NCBI GenBank assembly: GCA_014695175.1
Contig: JACJNV010000363.1
Span: 1 to 62,546, forward strand
Direction of reading: 5' to 3'
Length of the DNA stretch: 62,546 bases
Source of the DNA: Microcoleus sp. FACHB-DQ6
GTDB lineage: Bacteria; Cyanobacteriota; Cyanobacteriia; Cyanobacteriales; Microcoleaceae
Shown: positions 10,950-22,187 of the stretch, in pieces
Layout: each line of letters starts with the position of its first letter
How positions within the stretch are numbered: the stretch's first letter is position 1
Program-made: the position numbers and the translations under genes
Notes under the pieces: generated by a model
Databases searched by the model: none
What the model saw: the letters and a program-made list of their open reading frames with translations, nothing else
What the model was told of the DNA's origin: nothing

Positions 10950-11393
10950 AGTAGGGAAACCGCAAGGCCCATTGGTTTCAACTTAAGGTAAAACCCATAG
11001 TCCGGCAGTCCGTCAGGGAATGAATTCCCTGCCTCAAAGTTAAAGTCCTCTTAAGAGGACTAAGTTGTTACGGTATTTAAATTGTCTGTTAAAAAACAAT
11101 CAAACAATGAGTGGCGTGGGCGTCCCGCCCGCCTCGAATATGCAATTTAAATGCGCGACAGCTTAATCAGTTTAAAAATCTTCTTCTGAGTCCTCTTCAG
11201 AGGACTTTCGCTATTAGACAGGGAATTCATTCCCTGGCGGACTCGCGGACTGGCAGATAGTCGGCTTCTGAGTCCTCTTCAGAGGACTTTCGCTATTAGA
11301 CAGGGAATTCATTCCCTGGCGGACTCGCGGACTCGCAGACTGGCAGATTGTCGGCTTAAGTTGATGACACCAATGGGCATTGCCGTTTCCATA
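10950..11393. repeat. Composite foldback element with imperfect terminal inverted repeats
   Basis: The left end (GGAAACCGCAAGGCCCATTG from about 10953) reappears inverted at the right end (CAATGGGCATTGCCGTTTCC, 11371-11390). Inside, the left arm carries two hairpins, CAGGGAATGAATTCCCTG (11014-11031) and AGTCCTCTTAAGAGGACT (11044-11061). The right half carries the same pair in reverse order twice, as an 82-bp tandem duplication (11189-11236 and 11271-11318). A 51-bp segment at 11108-11161 recurs inverted at about 51788-51838. No coding capacity is visible. Confidence 0.65.
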
Positions 11394-11411: not shown

Positions 11412-11440
11412 TTGACATCCCCCTCTCCCTGTGCTAGCTT
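11412..11440 (+). promoter_or_regulatory. Putative promoter of the aro leader transcript
   Basis: There is a perfect -35 hexamer TTGACA at 11412-11417, a 17-base spacer and a weak -10 TAGCTT at 11435-11440. It lies 46 bases upstream of the first leader-peptide ATG and just downstream of the foldback element. The -10 is poor, so this is a plausible rather than firm call. Confidence 0.5.
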
Positions 11441-11485
11441 GTGCAATAGTATTGTGTTTAATCCACAAAGCGCAGCACTTCACCT

Positions 11486-11542
11486 ATGTTCACAGCCAAC
11501 AGCTATTTTTATTTTTGGTACAGCCAAGTTCGCCCGGAGTGA
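11486..11542 (+). CDS. Aromatic leader peptide 1 of the DAHP synthase attenuator
   Basis: This 18-codon frame encodes MFTANSYFYFWYSQVRPE. Six consecutive residues (7-12) are Tyr, Phe or Trp, far beyond chance. The last codons (GTT CGC CCG GAG) form the 5' arm of a strong hairpin (11528-11574), and a rho-independent terminator follows at 11573-11604. This is the geometry of ribosome-mediated attenuation. Stalling at uncharged Tyr, Phe or Trp tRNA would leave the 5' arm free, whereas a ribosome at the stop codon would cover it. No strong Shine-Dalgarno is seen upstream of the ATG, which is the main weakness. Its core matches leader peptide 2 (S-x-F-Y-F-W-x-x-Q). Confidence 0.75.
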   Translation: MFTANSYFYFWYSQVRPE

Positions 11543-11574
11543 ATTTACAATTCACTGTGAACATCCGGGCGAAC
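11528..11574 (+). promoter_or_regulatory. Candidate antiterminator hairpin of attenuator 1
   Basis: GTTCGCCCGG (11528-11537) is the exact reverse complement of CCGGGCGAAC (11565-11574). The loop holds a further stem, AGTGAATT/AATTCACT (11538-11556). The 3' arm shares bases 11573-11574 with the terminator stem, or 11571-11574 if the terminator stem is extended with A-U and G-U pairs, so the two structures compete. Confidence 0.55.
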
Positions 11575-11604
11575 CGCAGATTAACACCTGCGGTTTTGTT
11601 TTTT
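11573..11604 (+). terminator. Rho-independent terminator 1 in the aro leader
   Basis: The stem is ACCGCAG/CTGCGGT with an eight-base loop, followed at once by TTTTGTTTTTT. It lies 30 bases after the leader peptide 1 stop codon and well before any gene, so it would end transcription inside the leader. Confidence 0.75.
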
Positions 11605-11649
11605 CTAGTTCTTTTCCCAACAACCAATCCAGTACAAGCGAAAACAGCA

Positions 11650-11712
11650 ATGACATTATTCAGTAACTGGTACTACAGCTTTTATTTTTGGCCCAACCAA
11701 AGTTCTGGGTAA
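11650..11712 (+). CDS. Aromatic leader peptide 2 of the DAHP synthase attenuator
   Basis: This 20-codon frame encodes MTLFSNWYYSFYFWPNQSSG, with eight aromatic residues between positions 4 and 14, including two Trp codons. The final codons (AGT TCT GGG TAA) contain AGTTCTGGGT (11701-11710). That segment pairs with ACCCGGAACT (11738-11747), which is also the 5' arm of terminator 2. A ribosome finishing the peptide would mask it and allow termination. A ribosome stalled on aromatic codons would leave it free to form the antiterminator. This is the classical trp/his/phe attenuation layout. As with peptide 1, no clear Shine-Dalgarno is visible. aroF starts 97 bases downstream. Confidence 0.82.
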   Translation: MTLFSNWYYSFYFWPNQSSG

Positions 11713-11747
11713 ATTGTCGCGCTGTCTTTTCGCACCAACCCGGAACT
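11701..11747 (+). promoter_or_regulatory. Candidate antiterminator of attenuator 2
   Basis: Ten bases at 11701-11710 pair with 11738-11747, nine Watson-Crick pairs and one G-U wobble. The 3' strand is the same ten bases that build the terminator 2 stem, so the two hairpins are mutually exclusive. Confidence 0.7.
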
Positions 11748-11768
11748 CCTAAAAGTTCCGGGTTTTTT
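11737..11768 (+). terminator. Rho-independent terminator 2 in the aro leader
   Basis: This is a perfect 11-bp stem AACCCGGAACT/AGTTCCGGGTT with a six-base loop, followed by six T. It ends 40 bases before the aroF ATG, so readthrough is required for expression of DAHP synthase. Confidence 0.85.
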
Positions 11769-11808
11769 GTTGTCAACCACCCACTTAAATTTCCCGGAGA
11801 ATTCCCTC

Positions 11809-12669
11809 ATGCTAGAAGCCAAACTCGTAACCAAATCTCATCCCGAACACCAAACAATTGTCAAACTCTCAGAAACAGTCTCAGTCGGCGGCACAGAATT
11901 ACTAATCATCGGCGGCCCCTGTACCGTCGAAAGTTCCGCCCAAATGGAAACAGTCGCCCGCCAACTATCCGCCGCCTCCGTGCAAGCTTTGCGAGGCGGA
12001 GTCTACAAACCCCGCACTTCTCCCTATTCTTTCCAAGGGATGGGAATTGAGGGACTCGAAATTTTAGCCGATGTCAGCCGGCGTTACGGTTTGCCCGTGG
12101 TGACAGAGGTAATGTCGATCGCCCAAATCGAGCCAGTTGTCACCTATGCTGATATGCTGCAACTAGGCAGTCGGAATATGCAAAACTTCGAGTTACTAAA
12201 GGCGATCGGTCAAGCCGGAAAACCAGTCCTGCTAAAACGTGGCTTGTCAGCCACAATCGAAGAATTTGTGATGGCCGCCGAATACATTCTCAGTCACGGA
12301 AATCCTGATGTAGTTCTGTGCGAAAGAGGCATCCGCAGCTTCGACAATTACACGCGGAATGTATTAGATTTAGGTGCAGTCGTAGCGCTGAAACAGTTAA
12401 CTCATTTGCCAGTAATAGTAGACCCTTCTCACGCCGTCGGCAAGCGAGAATTAGTCGCACCACTAGCCAAAGCAGCGGTTGCTTGCGGTGCAGACGGATT
12501 AATTATTGAGTGTCACCCGCAACCGGAAAAATCGGTTTCTGACGCGCGGCAAGCTCTTTCTTTACCCGATATGGTAGATTTAGTTGCCAGTTTGCGACCT
12601 GTAGCCACCGCCGTTGGCCGGTGCATACCCGATATTAATGTGCCTTCAGAGGTATTAAGTTTGAAGTGA
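11809..12669 (+). CDS. aroF: 3-deoxy-7-phosphoheptulonate synthase (DAHP synthase, type I-beta)
   Basis: This 286-aa enzyme catalyses the first step of the shikimate pathway, condensing phosphoenolpyruvate and erythrose 4-phosphate. Visible signatures are GGPCTVES (metal-binding Cys38), RGGVYKPRTSPYSFQGMG, GSRNMQNFELL, LLKRGLSAT, CERGIRSFDNYTRN, VDPSHAVGKR and IIECHPQPEKS. The ATG at 11809 has GGAGA eight bases upstream. An earlier in-frame TTG lies inside the terminator T-run and is rejected. Only about 30 residues precede the barrel, so the N-terminal ferredoxin-like/ACT-type regulatory domain found in many type I-beta enzymes is absent. The tandem leader-peptide attenuators upstream would supply control by aromatic amino acids at the RNA level (inference). 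Confidence 0.95.
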   Translation: MLEAKLVTKSHPEHQTIVKLSETVSVGGTELLIIGGPCTVESSAQMETVARQLSAASVQALRGGVYKPRTSPYSFQGMGIEGLEILADVSRRYGLPVVTEVMSIAQIEPVVTYADMLQLGSRNMQNFELLKAIGQAGKPVLLKRGLSATIEEFVMAAEYILSHGNPDVVLCERGIRSFDNYTRNVLDLGAVVALKQLTHLPVIVDPSHAVGKRELVAPLAKAAVACGADGLIIECHPQPEKSVSDARQALSLPDMVDLVASLRPVATAVGRCIPDINVPSEVLSLK

Positions 12670-13161: not shown

Positions 13162-13602
13162 TTATTCTTCGTCTAAGTGTTCGGCCACAGCTTGGTAAAG
13201 TTCCAAAACGTGGCGATCGAGTAAACTATAAAAAACTTGTCTCCCAACCTTGCGGTAACTTACCAACCGCATCGCCCGCAACGCCCGCAACTGATGCGAT
13301 ACTGCTGACTCGCTCATACTCAAAGCCGCAGCCAAGTCACACACGCACAGTTCTTGTTTTGCCAAAACCGACAGCAGCCGCAGGCGGTTCGCATCTCCCA
13401 AAAGACTGAAAAACTCTGCCATCCGCTGCGCTTTTGCCGTGTTGAGAACTTGTGTTTGGATGTCTCCGGCCCGCCAACAGTCAACTAGGTGCGGTCGATC
13501 GCACGTTGGTGTATCGTTTTGTTCGCGAGGCTGACTTATCGCTCCATTAACAGCAGAGTTGGGTGACATCTTTTCCCGCCTGGTTTTAATTCTCATTTTC
13601 AT
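13162..13602 (-). CDS. smtB: SmtB/ZiaR-type ArsR-family zinc-sensing repressor
   Basis: This 146-aa winged-helix repressor carries ELCVCDLA at 84-91 (alpha3 site, Cys86 and Cys88), the recognition helix SESAVSHQLRALRAMRL, and an alpha5 zinc site Asp129, His131, His142, Glu145. The alpha5 residues have exactly the spacing of D104/H106/H117/E120 in SmtB. Zinc binding should release DNA and derepress smtA. It is transcribed divergently from smtA, with a 12-2-12 operator between them. The ATG at 13602 gives a basic N-terminus; ATGs at 13596 and 13569 are alternatives, and the last (MSPNSAV) has a GCGGGAAAAG stretch before it. Bases 13384-13401 are identical to the smtA terminator. Confidence 0.9.
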   Translation of the reverse strand: MKMRIKTRREKMSPNSAVNGAISQPREQNDTPTCDRPHLVDCWRAGDIQTQVLNTAKAQRMAEFFSLLGDANRLRLLSVLAKQELCVCDLAAALSMSESAVSHQLRALRAMRLVSYRKVGRQVFYSLLDRHVLELYQAVAEHLDEE

Positions 13603-13654
13603 TTTAGTGCGATCGGCAAACCTTTTGTAACAAAACTTTTACATTTCCTTTACT

Positions 13655-13680
13655 TATATCTGAATATGTGTTCATATATA
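13655..13680. promoter_or_regulatory. SmtB-type 12-2-12 operator
   Basis: TATATCTGAATA, two spacer bases, then TGTTCATATATA: ten of twelve positions are inverted-symmetric. This is the arrangement of SmtB/ZiaR operators (TGAACA/TGTTCA cores). It lies 35 bases upstream of the smtA ATG and 52 bases upstream of smtB, so it could control both. Confidence 0.8.
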
Positions 13681-13715
13681 AGTATGCACAAACAAACCCA
13701 CGAGGAAAAACTAAA

Positions 13716-13883
13716 ATGACTACCGTCACCCAAATGAAATGCGCCTGTCCTTCTTGCCTCTGCGTTGTCAACCTCAGTGACGCCATTGAAAAACAGGGCA
13801 AAACATACTGTTCCAGTGCTTGCGCTGACGGGCACCCCAACGGCAGCGGCTGCGGCCACACAGGCTGCGAGTGCAGCAAGTAA
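13716..13883 (+). CDS. smtA: Bacterial metallothionein SmtA
   Basis: This 55-aa metallothionein has nine Cys (9, 11, 14, 16, 32, 36, 46, 51, 53) and two His (40, 48), the ligand set of the Zn4Cys9His2 cluster in Synechococcus SmtA. KCACPSCLC, YCSSACADGH and CGHTGCEC match the family almost throughout. The ATG at 13716 is chosen because GAGGA lies ten bases upstream; the longer frame from 13668 would cross the operator. It stores and buffers zinc (also binding Cd and Cu) in the cytosol. It is divergent from smtB and followed by a strong terminator at 13933. Confidence 0.95.
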   Translation: MTTVTQMKCACPSCLCVVNLSDAIEKQGKTYCSSACADGHPNGSGCGHTGCECSK

Positions 13884-13932
13884 ATATTCTGCTTCAGAAA
13901 AGGTTAATCACCAACTGCCAAATATATCTAAA

Positions 13933-13966
13933 GGGAGATGCGCGGTTCGCATCTCCCAATTTTTGG
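13933..13966 (+). terminator. smtA terminator
   Basis: A perfect 10-bp stem GGGAGATGCG/CGCATCTCCC with a five-base loop, followed by AATTTTT. Its loop and 3' arm (13942-13959) are identical over 18 bases to 13384-13401 inside smtB. Confidence 0.82.
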
Positions 13967-14171
13967 CGTTTAGGTTAAAGAAAAGTTAAAATAAAGCTAA
14001 CTTAAGGTTAAGACTGCCTTAATAGACTAAATACAGAGCGAAAAAGCATAATTGCTACTTAGGCAATACAATAGAAGCAAGTTAGCGCCGCGATACAGAG
14101 TAAAAATAGTGCTATTAACAGCAGAGACCGAACCAAAAGTTGAATACCAAAAGTTTAATTAGGAGGGGGCA

Positions 14172-14432
14172 ATGAAAGAGCGGGAAGATTTTTTACATCC
14201 TCGCAATCGCTACTACGGTGATTTCACGCCAGAAAACTTGGCGTTTAATGCCAACTTGCAGGAGTTTGCTCAAAAAATAACTTATATTTGCTCGCTGGAA
14301 ACTGGGGGGAAAATTAGCGCTGAGAAAGCCTATAAAGATATTAAGATGCTTTGGAAAGACTTAAAATCCTCTAAGAAGCAATTGGGAATTGGCCAAAAAC
14401 CCCCCAGTACCGAGGAGCAAAATTCACCTTAA
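14172..14432 (+). CDS. DUF7219-like small cyanobacterial protein
   Basis: This is an 86-aa soluble protein with an AGGAGGGGG ribosome-binding site directly upstream. The pattern DFLHPRNRYYGDFTPENLAF, then NANLQEFAQ and LETGGKIS, then KAYKDIKMLWKDLKSSKKQLGIG recalls a small family annotated only in cyanobacteria (DUF7219). Its function is unknown. It is rich in charged residues and probably mostly helical, with no cysteines that would suggest metal binding except one. It sits between smtA and znuA, but that does not prove a role in zinc biology. About 290 bp before it hold no other gene. Confidence 0.75.
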   Translation: MKEREDFLHPRNRYYGDFTPENLAFNANLQEFAQKITYICSLETGGKISAEKAYKDIKMLWKDLKSSKKQLGIGQKPPSTEEQNSP

Positions 14433-14445
14433 AGTCATCGCAGCC

Positions 14446-14493
14446 AACGCAGCGTTTGCAATCGAAAACCCCTGCGATTGGGAGCGCTGCGTT
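14446..14493. terminator. Possible bidirectional terminator hairpin
   Basis: AACGCAGCG (14446-14454) pairs with CGCTGCGTT (14485-14493), with an inner CAATCG/CGATTG stem. It lies between the convergent DUF7219 and znuA genes. Only a short TTTT follows, so termination is plausible but not certain. Confidence 0.5.
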
Positions 14494-14541
14494 TTGCGGT
14501 GTACCCAGCAAATGTAAGGTGTTTGCTGCACTTTAGAAAGT

Positions 14542-15618
14542 TTATGGTTTGGGATTTGGGGCAGTTTCTCTCGCAAAGGAAGTACAATTACCGCCGAGGC
14601 CAGAAATAATCGCGCAAGTATTAGTTTTCAGCATTCCCTGATATGTATCAGCACCGGTGCCGGGGCCACCCAACTCGTCGCTGTAAAGTTCTTTGTCCCA
14701 AATTTTGACATTTGCCTCCCTCGCTACAGTCTCCATCAACTTCGGATTAGTTGTGGTTTCGGCAAAAATTGTCGGCACTCCTGTGCTCTTAATTTCTGAT
14801 GACAATTCGGCAATTCTTGCGGCGGTGGGCTGTTCCTCTGTTGTCACACCCTGCAAAGCTCCTGCAATCTCCAAACCGTAAGCATCGGCATAGTAACTCA
14901 GAGCATCGTGAGTTGTTACTAACTTGCGTTTTTCTGCTGGAATCGTCGCAATTTGAGCTTTTATCCAAGTATCTATTTTTTGCAACTCATCTGTTAAGCT
15001 TGCTGCATTTTTTGTATAAAGTTGAGCATTGCTGGGGGAAACTTTGATCAATTCATCGCGGATTGTTGTTACTATACCGATGCCATTTTGTGGGTTATGC
15101 CAAACGTGAGGATCAGGGACTTTTTCGCCTTCTTCGTGGGGTTGGTTTTCCGCTTTCTCTTCACCGTGTTCGTGTTCGTGTTTGCCCATCAGCGGTTTGG
15201 GAACGGCGAGTTCGTGTACGGCGATTTTGGGCGCAGAATTACTGCTGGATTGAATTAACTTAATGATGCTGGGTTCGTGGTTGTAGCCGCCGTATAAAAT
15301 CAGATTTGCTGTTTCAATCGCTTTGCGGTCTTCCGGCTTAGTTTGATAGGCGTGGGGGTCGTCTCCCGGCTTAATTAGACAGGTGGTGTCGATCGAACTT
15401 TGAGCTATTTCTTTAGTTATGTCGCAGATAACGCCAGTCGTGGTCACCACTTTGGGCAAGTTAGCGGCGGGACTGGCTTGAGTTTGAGTTGTGGCGGGAC
15501 TCTCTGGCGCCCGATTGCTTGCGTTCTGTCCTCCACTGCACCCAACCACTCCGCAGCCAATTGCCAAAACAGCCGCACCGCATAATCTGCCGGTTTTTCC
15601 AGGGAAGTTCGTTAACAT
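14542..15618 (-). CDS. znuA: Zinc ABC transporter substrate-binding lipoprotein ZnuA
   Basis: This is a 358-aa metal-binding lipoprotein of the ZnuA/cluster A-I family. The signal sequence ends in a lipobox-like VVGC (Cys27), followed by a Pro/Ser/Thr linker. A His/Glu-rich loop (about 147-172, GKHEHEHGEE and QPHEEGEK) is the zinc-specific signature that distinguishes ZnuA from manganese binders, and PDPHVWHNP gives a conserved His ligand. It captures periplasmic Zn(II) for ZnuBC. It is transcribed divergently from znuC across a Zur-like palindrome. I place the start at ATG 15618; a GTG two codons earlier (15624) is possible. Confidence 0.93.
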   Translation of the reverse strand: MLTNFPGKTGRLCGAAVLAIGCGVVGCSGGQNASNRAPESPATTQTQASPAANLPKVVTTTGVICDITKEIAQSSIDTTCLIKPGDDPHAYQTKPEDRKAIETANLILYGGYNHEPSIIKLIQSSSNSAPKIAVHELAVPKPLMGKHEHEHGEEKAENQPHEEGEKVPDPHVWHNPQNGIGIVTTIRDELIKVSPSNAQLYTKNAASLTDELQKIDTWIKAQIATIPAEKRKLVTTHDALSYYADAYGLEIAGALQGVTTEEQPTAARIAELSSEIKSTGVPTIFAETTTNPKLMETVAREANVKIWDKELYSDELGGPGTGADTYQGMLKTNTCAIISGLGGNCTSFARETAPNPKP

Positions 15619-15630
15619 TTTCACTTTTGG

Positions 15631-19098: not shown

Positions 19099-20070
19099 TT
19101 AAACCAGGCATTTACGGAAATCCTCTCGCAATTGATTTTCGTTTAAGTCGCGACCGATGAATACAAGCTCGTTTTTCGGAGTTTCTGTAGCCTTCCAAGG
19201 TCGATCCGGTCTGCCATCGAACAGCATATGCACTCCTTGAAAAACAAATCTGTTGTTTTCTCCGGCCATATTCAAAATGCCTTTGCTCCGAAAGATATTC
19301 GTGCCTTGAGTCCGCAACAATTCCTCAATCCAATCGCTAAATTTGTTGCCGTCAATAGCACCGGATTCTACTATTGCTACGGAAGTTACTGTTTCGTCGT
19401 GTTCGTGAGTGTGTTCGCCCAAAAAGTCTGGTTCGATTTCTAATGCCCGGTTCAAATCAAATGCTTTGACGCCCAACAAAGCATCCATTTGTAATTCAGC
19501 GTTGTGAGTACGGTAAATTTTTGCCATTGCATTCATGGCGCGAATTCGCTTTTCTAATTCTGCTAATTCTTCGTCAGTCACTAAATCAGTTTTGTTGAGC
19601 AAAACTACATCAGCAAATGCAATTTGTTCTTGAGCTTCGTCAGCGTCCCAGTGCTGCCAGATGTGCTTGGCATCAACTACCGTGACAACTGCATCTAGCA
19701 GTAATGTGTCCCGCATATCTTCGTCTACAAAAAATGTTTGAATTACGGGTGCGGGGTCGGCTAAACCTGTGGTTTCGATGACTATGTGATCGAATTTGTC
19801 TCGGCGCTTCATTAAGTTACCGATAATCCGAATTAAATCGCCTCGGACTGTACAGCAAATGCAGCCGTTGTTCATCTCGAAAATTTCTTCGTCGGCATCA
19901 ATTATCAGTTGGTTGTCGATGCCTACTTCGCCGAACTCGTTGACGATGACTGCAACTTTTTTGCCGTGTTCCTCTGTTAAAATGCGGTTCAGTAGCGTAG
20001 TTTTGCCTGCACCTAAATAGCCTGTGAGAACGGTAACAGGAACTGATTCGATCGCCCCAGCACTCACCAT
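19099..20070 (-). CDS. COG0523 (CobW/ZNG1-like) GTPase, Zur-type
   Basis: This 323-aa G3E GTPase has the P-loop GYLGAGKTT (17-25), the CxCC metal motif NGCICCTV (Cys70, 72, 73), NKTDLV (guanine specificity) and the C-terminal CobW_C domain with RSKGILNMAGE. A His/acid stretch GEHTHEHDE lies between the domains. COG0523 proteins with CxCC motifs act as metallochaperones. A Zur-like box 24 bases upstream argues for a zinc-deficiency role rather than cobalamin. It is followed by the repeat array and the WD40 gene. Confidence 0.9.
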   Translation of the reverse strand: MVSAGAIESVPVTVLTGYLGAGKTTLLNRILTEEHGKKVAVIVNEFGEVGIDNQLIIDADEEIFEMNNGCICCTVRGDLIRIIGNLMKRRDKFDHIVIETTGLADPAPVIQTFFVDEDMRDTLLLDAVVTVVDAKHIWQHWDADEAQEQIAFADVVLLNKTDLVTDEELAELEKRIRAMNAMAKIYRTHNAELQMDALLGVKAFDLNRALEIEPDFLGEHTHEHDETVTSVAIVESGAIDGNKFSDWIEELLRTQGTNIFRSKGILNMAGENNRFVFQGVHMLFDGRPDRPWKATETPKNELVFIGRDLNENQLREDFRKCLV

Positions 20071-20252: not shown

Positions 20253-21287
20253 TTAATTGTTAATCATAGCTGCAATTCGATCGCGCTCTAACTCTCGACC
20301 GATCAGCACTAATTTGGTTTGGCGGAGTTCCGAAGGTTGCCAAGGGCGATCGTAAAAATATTCTATGCGCGAGCCCACACCTTGCAACACCATCCTCATC
20401 GGTTTCTTGGGAACCGCCACAAACCCTTTAATCCGATAGATTTCCTCCTGCTGCATCAAGGATTGCAGTTTTTTCACCAAAGCTTCAGGTTCAAATTCGC
20501 GATCGGCAATAAAGAAAGTCGAGTTAATATCATCATCGTGTTCGTGTTCCTCCTCAGCATCGTGGTGACTCGGACGAGACTCCAAATCATCCTCAACCGC
20601 CGCATTAAATCCCATTAGCACATCGGGGTTAATTTCGCCACCTTTGCAGGGCACAATTTTCACACTCGGACGCAACTCTTGTTGCAACCAGCTTTGGACT
20701 TTCTGGTGAGTTTCAGCATCTACGCGATCGACCTTCGTTAAAAGTACCATATCGGCACAGGCTAACTGGTCTTCAAACAATTCCTCGATCGGAGTTTCGT
20801 GATCTAAACTAGAATCAGCCTGCCGCTGTGCCATCAAAGCATCGATATCACCGACAAAAGTACCGCTAGCAACAGCTTCGCAATCGACAACAGCAACAAC
20901 ACCGTCTACTGTAGCACCCGTGCGAATTTCCGGCCAGCGGAAAGCTTGAATCAAAGGTTTAGGAAGTGCGAGGCCCGAAGTCTCAATTAAAATACAATCA
21001 ATTTGTTCTCGGCGCTTCAACAATTCCTGCATAGTCGGCAAGAATTCCTCTTGAACAGTGCAGCAAAGACAACCATTTGTTAGTTCAACAATATTGCTGC
21101 TGACATTTTCTTCTTCGTCGCAAACTTGGCAATCGCGCAGCAGTTCTCCGTCAATCCCGATTTCGCCAAATTCGTTCACCAGAACAGCGATGCGGCGACC
21201 TTGATTATTTTGCAATAAGTGGCGAATTAAGGTAGTTTTGCCGCTACCGAGAAAACCAGTGATGACAGTAACAGGAATTTTGTGCAT
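20253..21287 (-). CDS. cobW: CobW-type COG0523 GTPase (cobalamin-linked)
   Basis: This 344-aa G3E GTPase has P-loop GFLGSGKTT (11-19), NGCLCCTV with Cys73, 75 and 76, TKVDRVD (specificity motif) and a C-terminal CobW_C domain with RIKGFVAVPKKPMR. An extra Cys pair (DCQVCDEEE) and a His/Asp-rich linker (SHHDAEEEHEHDDD) offer further metal ligands. The next gene upstream on the same strand is a DUF1636 protein preceded by a cobalamin riboswitch. I therefore assign it to the cobalt/B12 branch, unlike the Zur-box paralogue 180 bp downstream. A 263-bp gap with a foldback element separates it from the DUF1636 gene, so shared transcription is inferred only. Confidence 0.88.
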   Translation of the reverse strand: MHKIPVTVITGFLGSGKTTLIRHLLQNNQGRRIAVLVNEFGEIGIDGELLRDCQVCDEEENVSSNIVELTNGCLCCTVQEEFLPTMQELLKRREQIDCILIETSGLALPKPLIQAFRWPEIRTGATVDGVVAVVDCEAVASGTFVGDIDALMAQRQADSSLDHETPIEELFEDQLACADMVLLTKVDRVDAETHQKVQSWLQQELRPSVKIVPCKGGEINPDVLMGFNAAVEDDLESRPSHHDAEEEHEHDDDINSTFFIADREFEPEALVKKLQSLMQQEEIYRIKGFVAVPKKPMRMVLQGVGSRIEYFYDRPWQPSELRQTKLVLIGRELERDRIAAMINN

Positions 21288-21961: not shown

Positions 21962-21997
21962 CCGTACCTCGCAGATGCGTTCAAAAGTGAGTTAGAT

Positions 21998-22122
<125 letters not shown>

Positions 22123-22187
22123 TCACATCATACCGCACTTGCCGCCTTTTTGGAAAAAAGTTATGTTGGTAACGTCAATCCATCAAA

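What the first reader, a model, noticed from the sequence alone, without database searches (positions are those of the whole stretch)
11412..11808. Two tandem aromatic leader-peptide attenuators ahead of DAHP synthase in a cyanobacterium
Seen directly: between a TTGACA promoter-like site and the aroF ATG lie two short frames, MFTANSYFYFWYSQVRPE (11486-11542) and MTLFSNWYYSFYFWPNQSSG (11650-11712). Each is followed by a stem with T-run (11573-11604 and 11737-11768). In the second, AGTTCTGGGT, which covers the last codons, pairs with the terminator 5' arm over ten bases, giving a textbook antiterminator. In the first, the last codons pair in a ten-base stem whose 3' arm overlaps the terminator stem. 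Established knowledge: this is how trp, phe and his leaders work in proteobacteria. Inference: the DAHP synthase gene is controlled by Tyr, Phe and Trp tRNA charging through two switches in series. I know of no such tandem attenuator described in cyanobacteria.
Basis: partly seen in the sequence, partly recalled or inferred. Interest (0 to 1): 0.93.

Follow-up and report, generated by a model that had tools for sequence, protein, structure and literature searches.

The report
Twin aromatic attenuators in cyanobacteria
Ahead of a cyanobacterial gene for the first enzyme of aromatic amino acid synthesis sit two short peptide genes in a row, each packed with phenylalanine, tyrosine and tryptophan codons and each followed by a predicted transcription-stop hairpin; they are conserved across many cyanobacteria and likely act as two switches in series that would let the gene be copied only when these amino acids run short, a type of control that a 2016 paper said lacked reliable data in this phylum.

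Summary
Observation confirmed and strengthened. Window 11486-11542 and 11650-11712 encode MFTANSYFYFWYSQVRPE and MTLFSNWYYSFYFWPNQSSG. Each is followed by an intrinsic-terminator-like stem whose 5' arm can instead pair with the end of the reading frame. In 80 relatives plus the window both leaders are present in 77 of 81; three misses are contig ends, one has other sequence upstream. In 292 genomes of the phylum AroF at 70% identity or more occurs in 29: 27 carry both units, one only the first, one only the second. In the other 263 the unit-1 model hit only a decayed aroF fragment and one weak match. Stems covary; aromatic codons change mostly synonymously or to another aromatic codon; a promoter motif precedes leader 1 in 77 of 77. 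Modelling puts the switch point at the last aromatic codons of both leaders. AroF lacks the regulatory domain that its paralogue has, so attenuation may supply the feedback (inferred). No Rfam family matches. Known relatives: trp/phe attenuators, aroR-aroF of Corynebacterium glutamicum, the tandem mgtCBR leader. New: the phylum, and two pan-aromatic leader-peptide attenuators in series. No transcript or ribosome data were available; function is inferred.

The parts
11412..11440 (+). predicted promoter: TTGACA 11412-11417, 17-base spacer, TAGCTT 11435-11440
   Evidence: TTGACA(>=5 of 6)-N16-18-TAnnnT within 130 nt of leader 1 in 77 of 77 loci, against 191 of 3850 mononucleotide-shuffled regions (motif chosen after seeing examples)
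11486..11542 (+). leader peptide 1, MFTANSYFYFWYSQVRPE, stop TGA
   Evidence: conserved core (S)YFYFW(F/Y); coding signature
11528..11538 (+). unit 1 antiterminator 5' arm (last codons of leader 1)
   Evidence: covariation
11564..11574 (+). unit 1 antiterminator 3' arm, overlaps the terminator by 4 bases (11571-11574)
11571..11604 (+). unit 1 predicted intrinsic terminator: 11571-11579 with 11588-11596, then T-rich tail
11650..11712 (+). leader peptide 2, MTLFSNWYYSFYFWPNQSSG, stop TAA
11701..11710 (+). unit 2 antiterminator 5' arm (last codons of leader 2)
11738..11747 (+). unit 2 antiterminator 3' arm, the same bases as most of the terminator 5' arm
11737..11768 (+). unit 2 predicted intrinsic terminator: 11737-11747 with 11754-11764, then T-run
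11809..12669 (+). aroF-type gene, DAHP synthase core (286 aa) without the N-terminal ferredoxin-like domain PF18152

Best explanation
Two predicted leader-peptide transcription attenuators lie in series between one predicted promoter and aroF, and they likely raise DAHP synthase transcription when charged tRNA for Phe, Tyr or Trp is scarce. Predicted working of each unit: with enough charged tRNA the leading ribosome runs to the stop codon, covers the 5' arm of the antiterminator, and the terminator hairpin forms. With a shortage of any one of the three, the ribosome would stall in the aromatic codon run, the last codons stay free and pair with the terminator's 5' arm, and RNA polymerase reads on. 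Because both units must be passed, the readthroughs would multiply, giving low leakage and a steeper response. Shown: the frames, the complementary arms and their overlap, covariation, coding signature, promoter motif and linkage to this AroF. Inferred: translation, ribosome stalling, termination in the cell, tRNA sensing and the series logic. Since this AroF lacks the regulatory domain found on its paralogue, attenuation may stand in for missing allosteric feedback (inferred).
For: Conservation: both leaders in 77 of 81 loci. Linkage: AroF at >=70% identity in 29 of 292 genomes; unit 1 in 28 and unit 2 in 28 of these, 27 with both. G030 carries unit 1 before a decayed aroF fragment (residues 39-104, 57% identical). 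Covariation: unit 1 antiterminator 95.6% of cells paired, 23 double-change cells, 0 of 500 shuffles; unit 2 antiterminator 91.1%, 14 cells, 0 of 500; unit 2 terminator 93.2%, 23 cells, 0 of 500. Where an arm is shared, A/G changes are matched by U/C in the terminator while the antiterminator keeps U-A or U-G. Coding: in the leader 2 aromatic core 50 of 57 single-base variants are synonymous and 6 aromatic-to-aromatic; leader 1, 26 and 15 of 53. Register: predicted antiterminator probability falls from 0.93 (A-site at codon -9) to 0.40 (-7) and 0.05 (-6) in unit 1, and from 0.87 (-7) to 0.10 (-5) in unit 2; the aromatic runs end at codon -7 in both. Promoter motif in 77 of 77. Single-unit G116 and G143 group with tandem G105, so each unit seems able to be lost alone.
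Against: No transcript, term-seq or ribosome-profiling data. Leader 1 has no Shine-Dalgarno-like motif in 77 of 77 loci; leader 2 has one in 44 of 77. Window unit 1: overlap of 4 bases leaves a short hairpin that coexists with the antiterminator in the minimum-energy fold; modelled P(terminator) there is 0.73-0.79 with the ribosome stalled at codons -14 to -8 and 0.85 at the stop, a weak contrast. Window unit 2: full-length equilibrium favours the terminator (P 0.94-0.97) at every ribosome position. In alignment A2 the unit 2 antiterminator's double-change cells were not above shuffles (2 cells, 141 of 500); they became so only with distant relatives, where sliding the partner by +3 still gave 12 double-change cells against 14, though with 16% paired, and the number of pair types was not above shuffles (392 of 500). 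For the unit 1 antiterminator the number of covarying pairs was not above shuffles (169 of 500). Terminator 1 hardly varies. Exceptions: L057 leader 1 lacks Trp; G185 leader 2 lacks Tyr; G174 leader 2 has no stop at the usual place and G143's stop lies a few codons further on; L001 lost leader 1 and the start of leader 2. Conserved non-aromatic residues (Pro-Arg, Gly in leader 2) are not explained by tRNA sensing alone.
Confidence: 0.9

Rival explanations
1. The leaders are arrest peptides: the nascent chain, not empty tRNA, stalls the ribosome in response to a free aromatic ligand, as TnaC does for Trp.
For: Leader 2 is conserved beyond the aromatic residues: Pro in 61 and Arg in 59 of 69 distinct ORFs, Arg through both AGA and CGN codons.
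Against: Distant relatives vary the order, number and identity of aromatics and some lose the Pro-Arg pair (AYWLFSFFFFTRICSG, NWFFGFFYTGTGSG), odd for an arrest motif; the aromatic run ends where the antiterminator becomes accessible.
Confidence: 0.06
2. Only one unit is regulatory; the other is a relic or a fixed terminator.
For: G116 keeps only unit 1 and G143 only unit 2; in the window each unit has a thermodynamic weakness.
Against: Unit 1 and unit 2 model matches both occur in 27 of 29 genomes over several families; the distant members read in detail mostly keep aromatic codons and stems in both; both units covary.
Confidence: 0.07
3. A ligand-binding RNA (riboswitch) or protein-bound leader controls termination and the ORFs are incidental.
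For: Stable folds and conserved nucleotides in the stems.
Against: Codon-pattern conservation, synonymous changes and stop-codon switching TAA/TAG; the stretch between the arms varies, though the unit 1 loop keeps a GTTTCC/GGAAAC-like inner stem in Nostoc types; no Rfam match with E below 0.9.
Confidence: 0.03

Closest known systems
aroR-aroF attenuator of Corynebacterium glutamicum (Neshat et al. 2014, not read, as told in PMC11802643; also PMC4046766; passages of both)
   Same: Leader peptide with aromatic codons (Phe-Tyr-Phe) ahead of an aroF DAHP synthase gene; transcription enhanced by ribosome stalling under Phe limitation
   Different: One leader, no Trp codons mentioned, Tyr said to have no effect, actinobacterium; here two leaders in series, nearly all with Phe, Tyr and Trp
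mgtCBR tandem attenuators of Salmonella (PMC3641672, passages)
   Same: Two short ORFs, each with its own attenuator, in one leader
   Different: The two ORFs sense different signals (ATP, proline-charged tRNA) and the genes are unrelated; here both are predicted to sense the same three amino acids
trp, pheA, his attenuators of proteobacteria (Rfam Trp_leader, Phe_leader and the like; recalled)
   Same: Control codons, antiterminator against terminator, ribosome position decides
   Different: Single attenuator, mostly one amino acid; no Rfam match here
uORFC-13-1 motif ahead of aroF in Acholeplasma (PMC8632094, section read)
   Same: Predicted uORF with Phe codon(s) and terminator ahead of aroF
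   Different: 24 sequences, one uORF, at least one Phe codon, Acholeplasma and unknown environmental organisms

Membership tests
ribosome-mediated (leader-peptide) transcription attenuators | short ORF with control codons for the end products of the regulated pathway | tested here: met
   aromatic runs in both leaders; F, Y and W all present in 76 of 77 (leader 1) and 77 of 77 (leader 2), one distant exception G185; DAHP synthase downstream. Translation itself not tested
ribosome-mediated (leader-peptide) transcription attenuators | intrinsic terminator between leader ORF and gene | tested here: met
   terminator-like stem plus T-run: unit 1 in 77 of 77; unit 2 in 67 of 77 by a script that allows no bulge and a short loop; 7 of the other 10 are in alignment A2 and show the CCGG-type stem with larger loops, bulges or mismatches, 3 not inspected
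ribosome-mediated (leader-peptide) transcription attenuators | antiterminator whose 5' arm lies in the end of the ORF and whose 3' arm overlaps the terminator | tested here: met
   overlap >=4 bases in 77 of 77 (unit 1) and 64 of 77 (unit 2; 10 without a scripted terminator, 3 where the scripted stems did not overlap); covariation
ribosome-mediated (leader-peptide) transcription attenuators | stall at control codons leaves the antiterminator free, ribosome at the stop covers it | tested here: met
   footprint and folding model, 36 of 36 and 34 of 37 sequences (3 dropped, no scripted terminator). With the 3' edge at A+9 or A+12 the switch lies at or just after the last aromatic codons; at A+15 it moves one codon upstream, so the last two aromatic codons of unit 1 would no longer free the antiterminator. 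A model, not a measurement
ribosome-mediated (leader-peptide) transcription attenuators | response to aminoacyl-tRNA shortage in the cell | not testable with these tools
   no expression data held
mgtCBR-like tandem attenuators | two ORFs with separate attenuators in one transcript | tested here: inconclusive
   two complete units behind one promoter motif; a single transcript is not shown
known Rfam families (leaders, riboswitches, T-box and others) | match to a covariance model | tested here: not met
   none at gathering scores in 11.4-11.8 kb; best of six sub-threshold matches E 0.96

The most novel reading that the evidence does not exclude
Cyanobacteria have genuine ribosome-coupled attenuation: a DAHP synthase without its allosteric domain gets its end-product feedback from RNA instead, through two pan-aromatic leader peptides in series that multiply two readthrough probabilities. 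This would show that RNA polymerase and the lead ribosome run closely coupled in a phylum without Rho, at least on this transcript.
Probability: 0.55. Interest if true: 0.88.

Novelty: new variant of a known kind. Interest (0 to 1): 0.82.

Why it matters
A 2016 paper by authors who work on attenuation says there is no reliable data for this mechanism in cyanobacteria (PMC4833913, passages). Here is a case with conservation, covariation, coding signature and strict gene linkage. Rho appears to be absent in cyanobacteria and termination is thought to be intrinsic (PMC7843447, passages), and some cyanobacterial mRNAs localise without translation (PMC7858274, passages), so how closely ribosome and polymerase are coupled there is an open matter; this leader offers a direct test. 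It also suggests a design principle: an enzyme lacking an allosteric domain controlled by doubled RNA feedback. If it works as predicted it would be a natural aromatic sensor for cyanobacterial engineering.

Tried and rejected
Other attenuators in the same genome: a scan of about 600 bases upstream of the longest frame for the second DAHP synthase (L082) and three trpE-family genes (L143-L145) found no aromatic-rich short ORF with a terminator; other amino acid operons were not examined. The codon pattern for Phe-Tyr-Phe-Trp occurs 42 times in the genome, too common to be useful, and the hits were not inspected. R1 and R2 gave one match per genome in the 29 AroF carriers. 24 further genomes gave weak R2 hits (E 2.3e-4 to 0.009; 22 of the 24 in one family, f31, outside the class) and G006 a weak R1 hit; none of these has AroF at 70% identity; taken as chance, only the loci L112 and L141 were looked at. 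These searches scored 12 candidates per genome with strict filters, so weak copies may be missed. Plasmids hold only AroF relatives under 60% identity. Reinitiation from leader 2 into aroF was set aside without a test: 96 bases and a terminator lie between. Sequestration of the aroF start was not tested. A first pass read minus-strand loci the wrong way round; corrected. Literature: ten searches; no paper on leader-peptide attenuation in cyanobacteria appeared in their listings, but several listings were capped (for example 30 of 53, 25 of 95, 20 of 122), most listed papers were not opened, and the library lacks most subscription journals. PMC1242208 (passages) lists a cyanobacterial rpoBC leader as corresponding to the E. 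coli attenuator there; that is not a leader-peptide system.

Full report
WHAT IS THERE. Between a predicted promoter (TTGACA 11412-11417, 17 bases, TAGCTT 11435-11440) and aroF (11809-12669) lie two consecutive units. Unit 1: ORF 11486-11542 (MFTANSYFYFWYSQVRPE), antiterminator 11528-11538 with 11564-11574, terminator 11571-11579 with 11588-11596 and a T-rich tail to 11604. Unit 2: ORF 11650-11712 (MTLFSNWYYSFYFWPNQSSG), antiterminator 11701-11710 with 11738-11747, terminator 11737-11747 with 11754-11764 and T-run to 11768. The two leaders share a 21-base stretch (11507-11527 and 11680-11700, 86%). It covers the shared aromatic codons, so it only hints at an old duplication.

CHANCE. Of 393 ATG-started frames of 12-30 aa on both strands of the window, only these two reach 6 of 10 aromatic residues; 0 of 2000 dinucleotide shuffles of the intergenic region gave two such ORFs and 5 gave one. 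Both regions fold far better than shuffles (z -4.9 and -5.0).

CONSERVATION. The best 80 of 452 AroF relatives found in the GTDB species genomes (the other 372 were not returned), plus the window, make 81 loci. Both leaders are found in 77. Of the four misses, L040, L041 and L058 have at most 102 bases upstream of the match, and L001 has another sequence in place of leader 1 and of the start of leader 2, while its unit 2 stems remain. Carriers include Microcoleus, Kamptonema, Nostoc, Calothrix, Scytonema, Brasilonema, Leptolyngbya, Coleofasciculus and Trichocoleus. A TTGACA(5 of 6 or better)-N16-18-TAnnnT motif lies within 130 bases upstream of leader 1 in 77 of 77, against 191 of 3850 mononucleotide-shuffled regions. 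The motif was defined after seeing examples, and related sequences are not independent.

LINKAGE TO AROF. Covariance models R1 and R2 and AroF itself were each searched in 292 genomes of the phylum (the RNA searches scored 12 candidates per genome with strict filters). AroF at 70-100% identity occurs in 29, one of them (G042) with an in-frame TGA; the next matches listed lie at 56% or below. Unit 1 is in 28 of the 29 (not G143), unit 2 in 28 (not G116), both in 27. In G116 and G143 a scan for aromatic-rich short ORFs also found only the one leader. In the other 263 genomes R1 gave two hits: G030, where leader 1 precedes a decayed aroF fragment (residues 39-104, 57% identical), and a weak hit in G006. 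R2 gave weak hits in 24 further genomes that I take as chance. Two same-genus genomes that lack this AroF (G195, G203) also lack both units. In the AroF tree G116, G143 and tandem-bearing G105 form one group (98/84; the bootstrap had not settled), so single-unit forms look like separate losses. Some G genomes are the same assemblies as named loci (for example L094 and L045), so 77 and 29 must not be added.

COVARIATION. In alignments A1 (36 rows) and A2 (37 rows; near-duplicate-filtered subsets of the 77) the unit 1 antiterminator has 93.1% paired cells and 16 double-change cells (0 of 500 shuffles), and the unit 2 terminator 95.2% and 12 (0 of 500). The unit 2 antiterminator's double changes were not above shuffles there (2 cells, 141 of 500) and terminator 1 is nearly invariant. 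With rows that I chose for diversity plus distant genomes (A4, 27 rows; A3, 28 rows) the unit 1 antiterminator has 23 double-change cells, the unit 2 antiterminator 14 and the unit 2 terminator 23, each 0 of 500. Not every measure exceeds its control: the number of covarying pairs in the unit 1 antiterminator (169 of 500) and the pair types in the unit 2 antiterminator (392 of 500) do not, and for the latter a +3 slide gives 12 double-change cells against 14, though with 16% instead of 91% of cells paired. Relatedness can inflate the shuffle test. Most telling are the shared arms: in L045, L072 and G060 the shared base of unit 1 changes A to G, its terminator partner changes U to C, and the antiterminator keeps a U-G pair; in unit 2 the A/G position behaves alike in most rows.

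CODING. In the aromatic core of leader 2 (69 distinct ORFs, 7 codons) 481 of 483 codons are aromatic; of 57 single-base variants 50 are synonymous, 6 aromatic-to-aromatic and 1 other, whereas of all 63 possible neighbours of the majority codons 45 are other and 8 stop. Leader 1 (66 ORFs, 6 codons): 372 of 396 aromatic; 26 synonymous, 15 aromatic, 12 other of 53 variants. These counts are per sequence, not per event. Leader 2 stops switch between TAA and TAG. Leader 1 has no Shine-Dalgarno-like motif in 77 of 77, leader 2 has one in 44 of 77, aroF in 77 of 81.

REGISTER. I blocked the RNA up to 12 bases past the first A-site base and folded the rest before the terminator's 3' arm is made. Mean antiterminator probability in unit 1 is 0.93 or more up to codon -9, 0.68 at -8, 0.40 at -7, 0.05 at -6. 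In unit 2 it is 0.87 at -7, 0.60 at -6, 0.10 at -5. The aromatic runs end at codon -7 in both (36 of 36 and 34 of 37 sequences; the other 3 had no scripted terminator). Moving the edge by 3 bases moves the switch by one codon; at A+15 the last two aromatic codons of unit 1 fall on the wrong side. At full-length equilibrium the mean terminator probability rises from 0.63-0.66 (stalled at -14 to -9) to 0.94 (at the stop) in unit 1, and from 0.34-0.57 to 0.92 in unit 2. For the window itself the contrast is weak: unit 1 0.73-0.77 against 0.85, unit 2 0.95-0.96 against 0.97, so in this organism the choice would have to be made during transcription.

THE GENE. The protein is a DAHP synthase (PF00793, TIGR01361). 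It lacks the ferredoxin-like domain PF18152 that the genome's second DAHP synthase carries; its best solved relative by sequence is 1vs1, a 276-residue enzyme. That core-only enzymes of this type escape feedback inhibition is recalled, not tested. Hence the inference that RNA feedback replaces allostery.

MECHANISM. Either leader would sense a shortage of any of Phe, Tyr or Trp; passing both terminators in series would multiply readthroughs. All steps from translation onward are inferred.

LITERATURE. A leader-peptide attenuator ahead of a DAHP synthase is known in C. glutamicum (aroR-aroF; passages of two papers), an aroF uORF is predicted in Acholeplasma (section read), and tandem attenuators with different signals exist in mgtCBR (passages). 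For cyanobacteria PMC4833913 states there is no reliable data on attenuation (passages). In the review PMC7007895 the passages shown concern riboswitches and trans-acting RNAs (12 of 27 places seen). No cyanobacterial leader-peptide attenuator appeared in the listings of ten searches. Rfam has no matching family. Verdict: a real, conserved, new variant of a known kind.

Noticed in passing
window 11183-11339: Two 75-nt direct repeats (99% alike, spacing 82) with AGTCCTCTTCAGAGGACT palindromes, and a 66-nt arm at 10999-11064 inverted to both (85%), just upstream of the promoter motif.
   Followed up: no
window 21984-22130, minus strand: Cobalamin riboswitch (RF00174, 50.1 bits); two CobW-family genes at 20253-21287 and 19099-20070 lie further on along the same strand.
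   Followed up: partly
window 13162-15624: Metal-homeostasis genes: ArsR-family regulator beside a divergently read prokaryotic metallothionein, then a ZnuA-like protein.
   Followed up: partly
L001:1-260: In this MAG leader 1 and the start of leader 2 are replaced by other sequence with a short inverted repeat that resembles a mobile-element end (resemblance recalled; could be misassembly); unit 2 stems remain.
   Followed up: no
L100 (G030), reverse strand, 1507-1840: Intact leader 1 followed by a decayed aroF fragment: attenuator and gene decaying together.
   Followed up: partly
window 11690-11710 and relatives (A2 columns 42-61): The conserved Pro codon of leader 2 is nearly always CCC (59 of 61 Pro codons) and can pair with GGGT of the antiterminator arm (4 pairs), a possible protector hairpin as in trp leaders; the Arg after it is conserved through different codons.
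   Followed up: no
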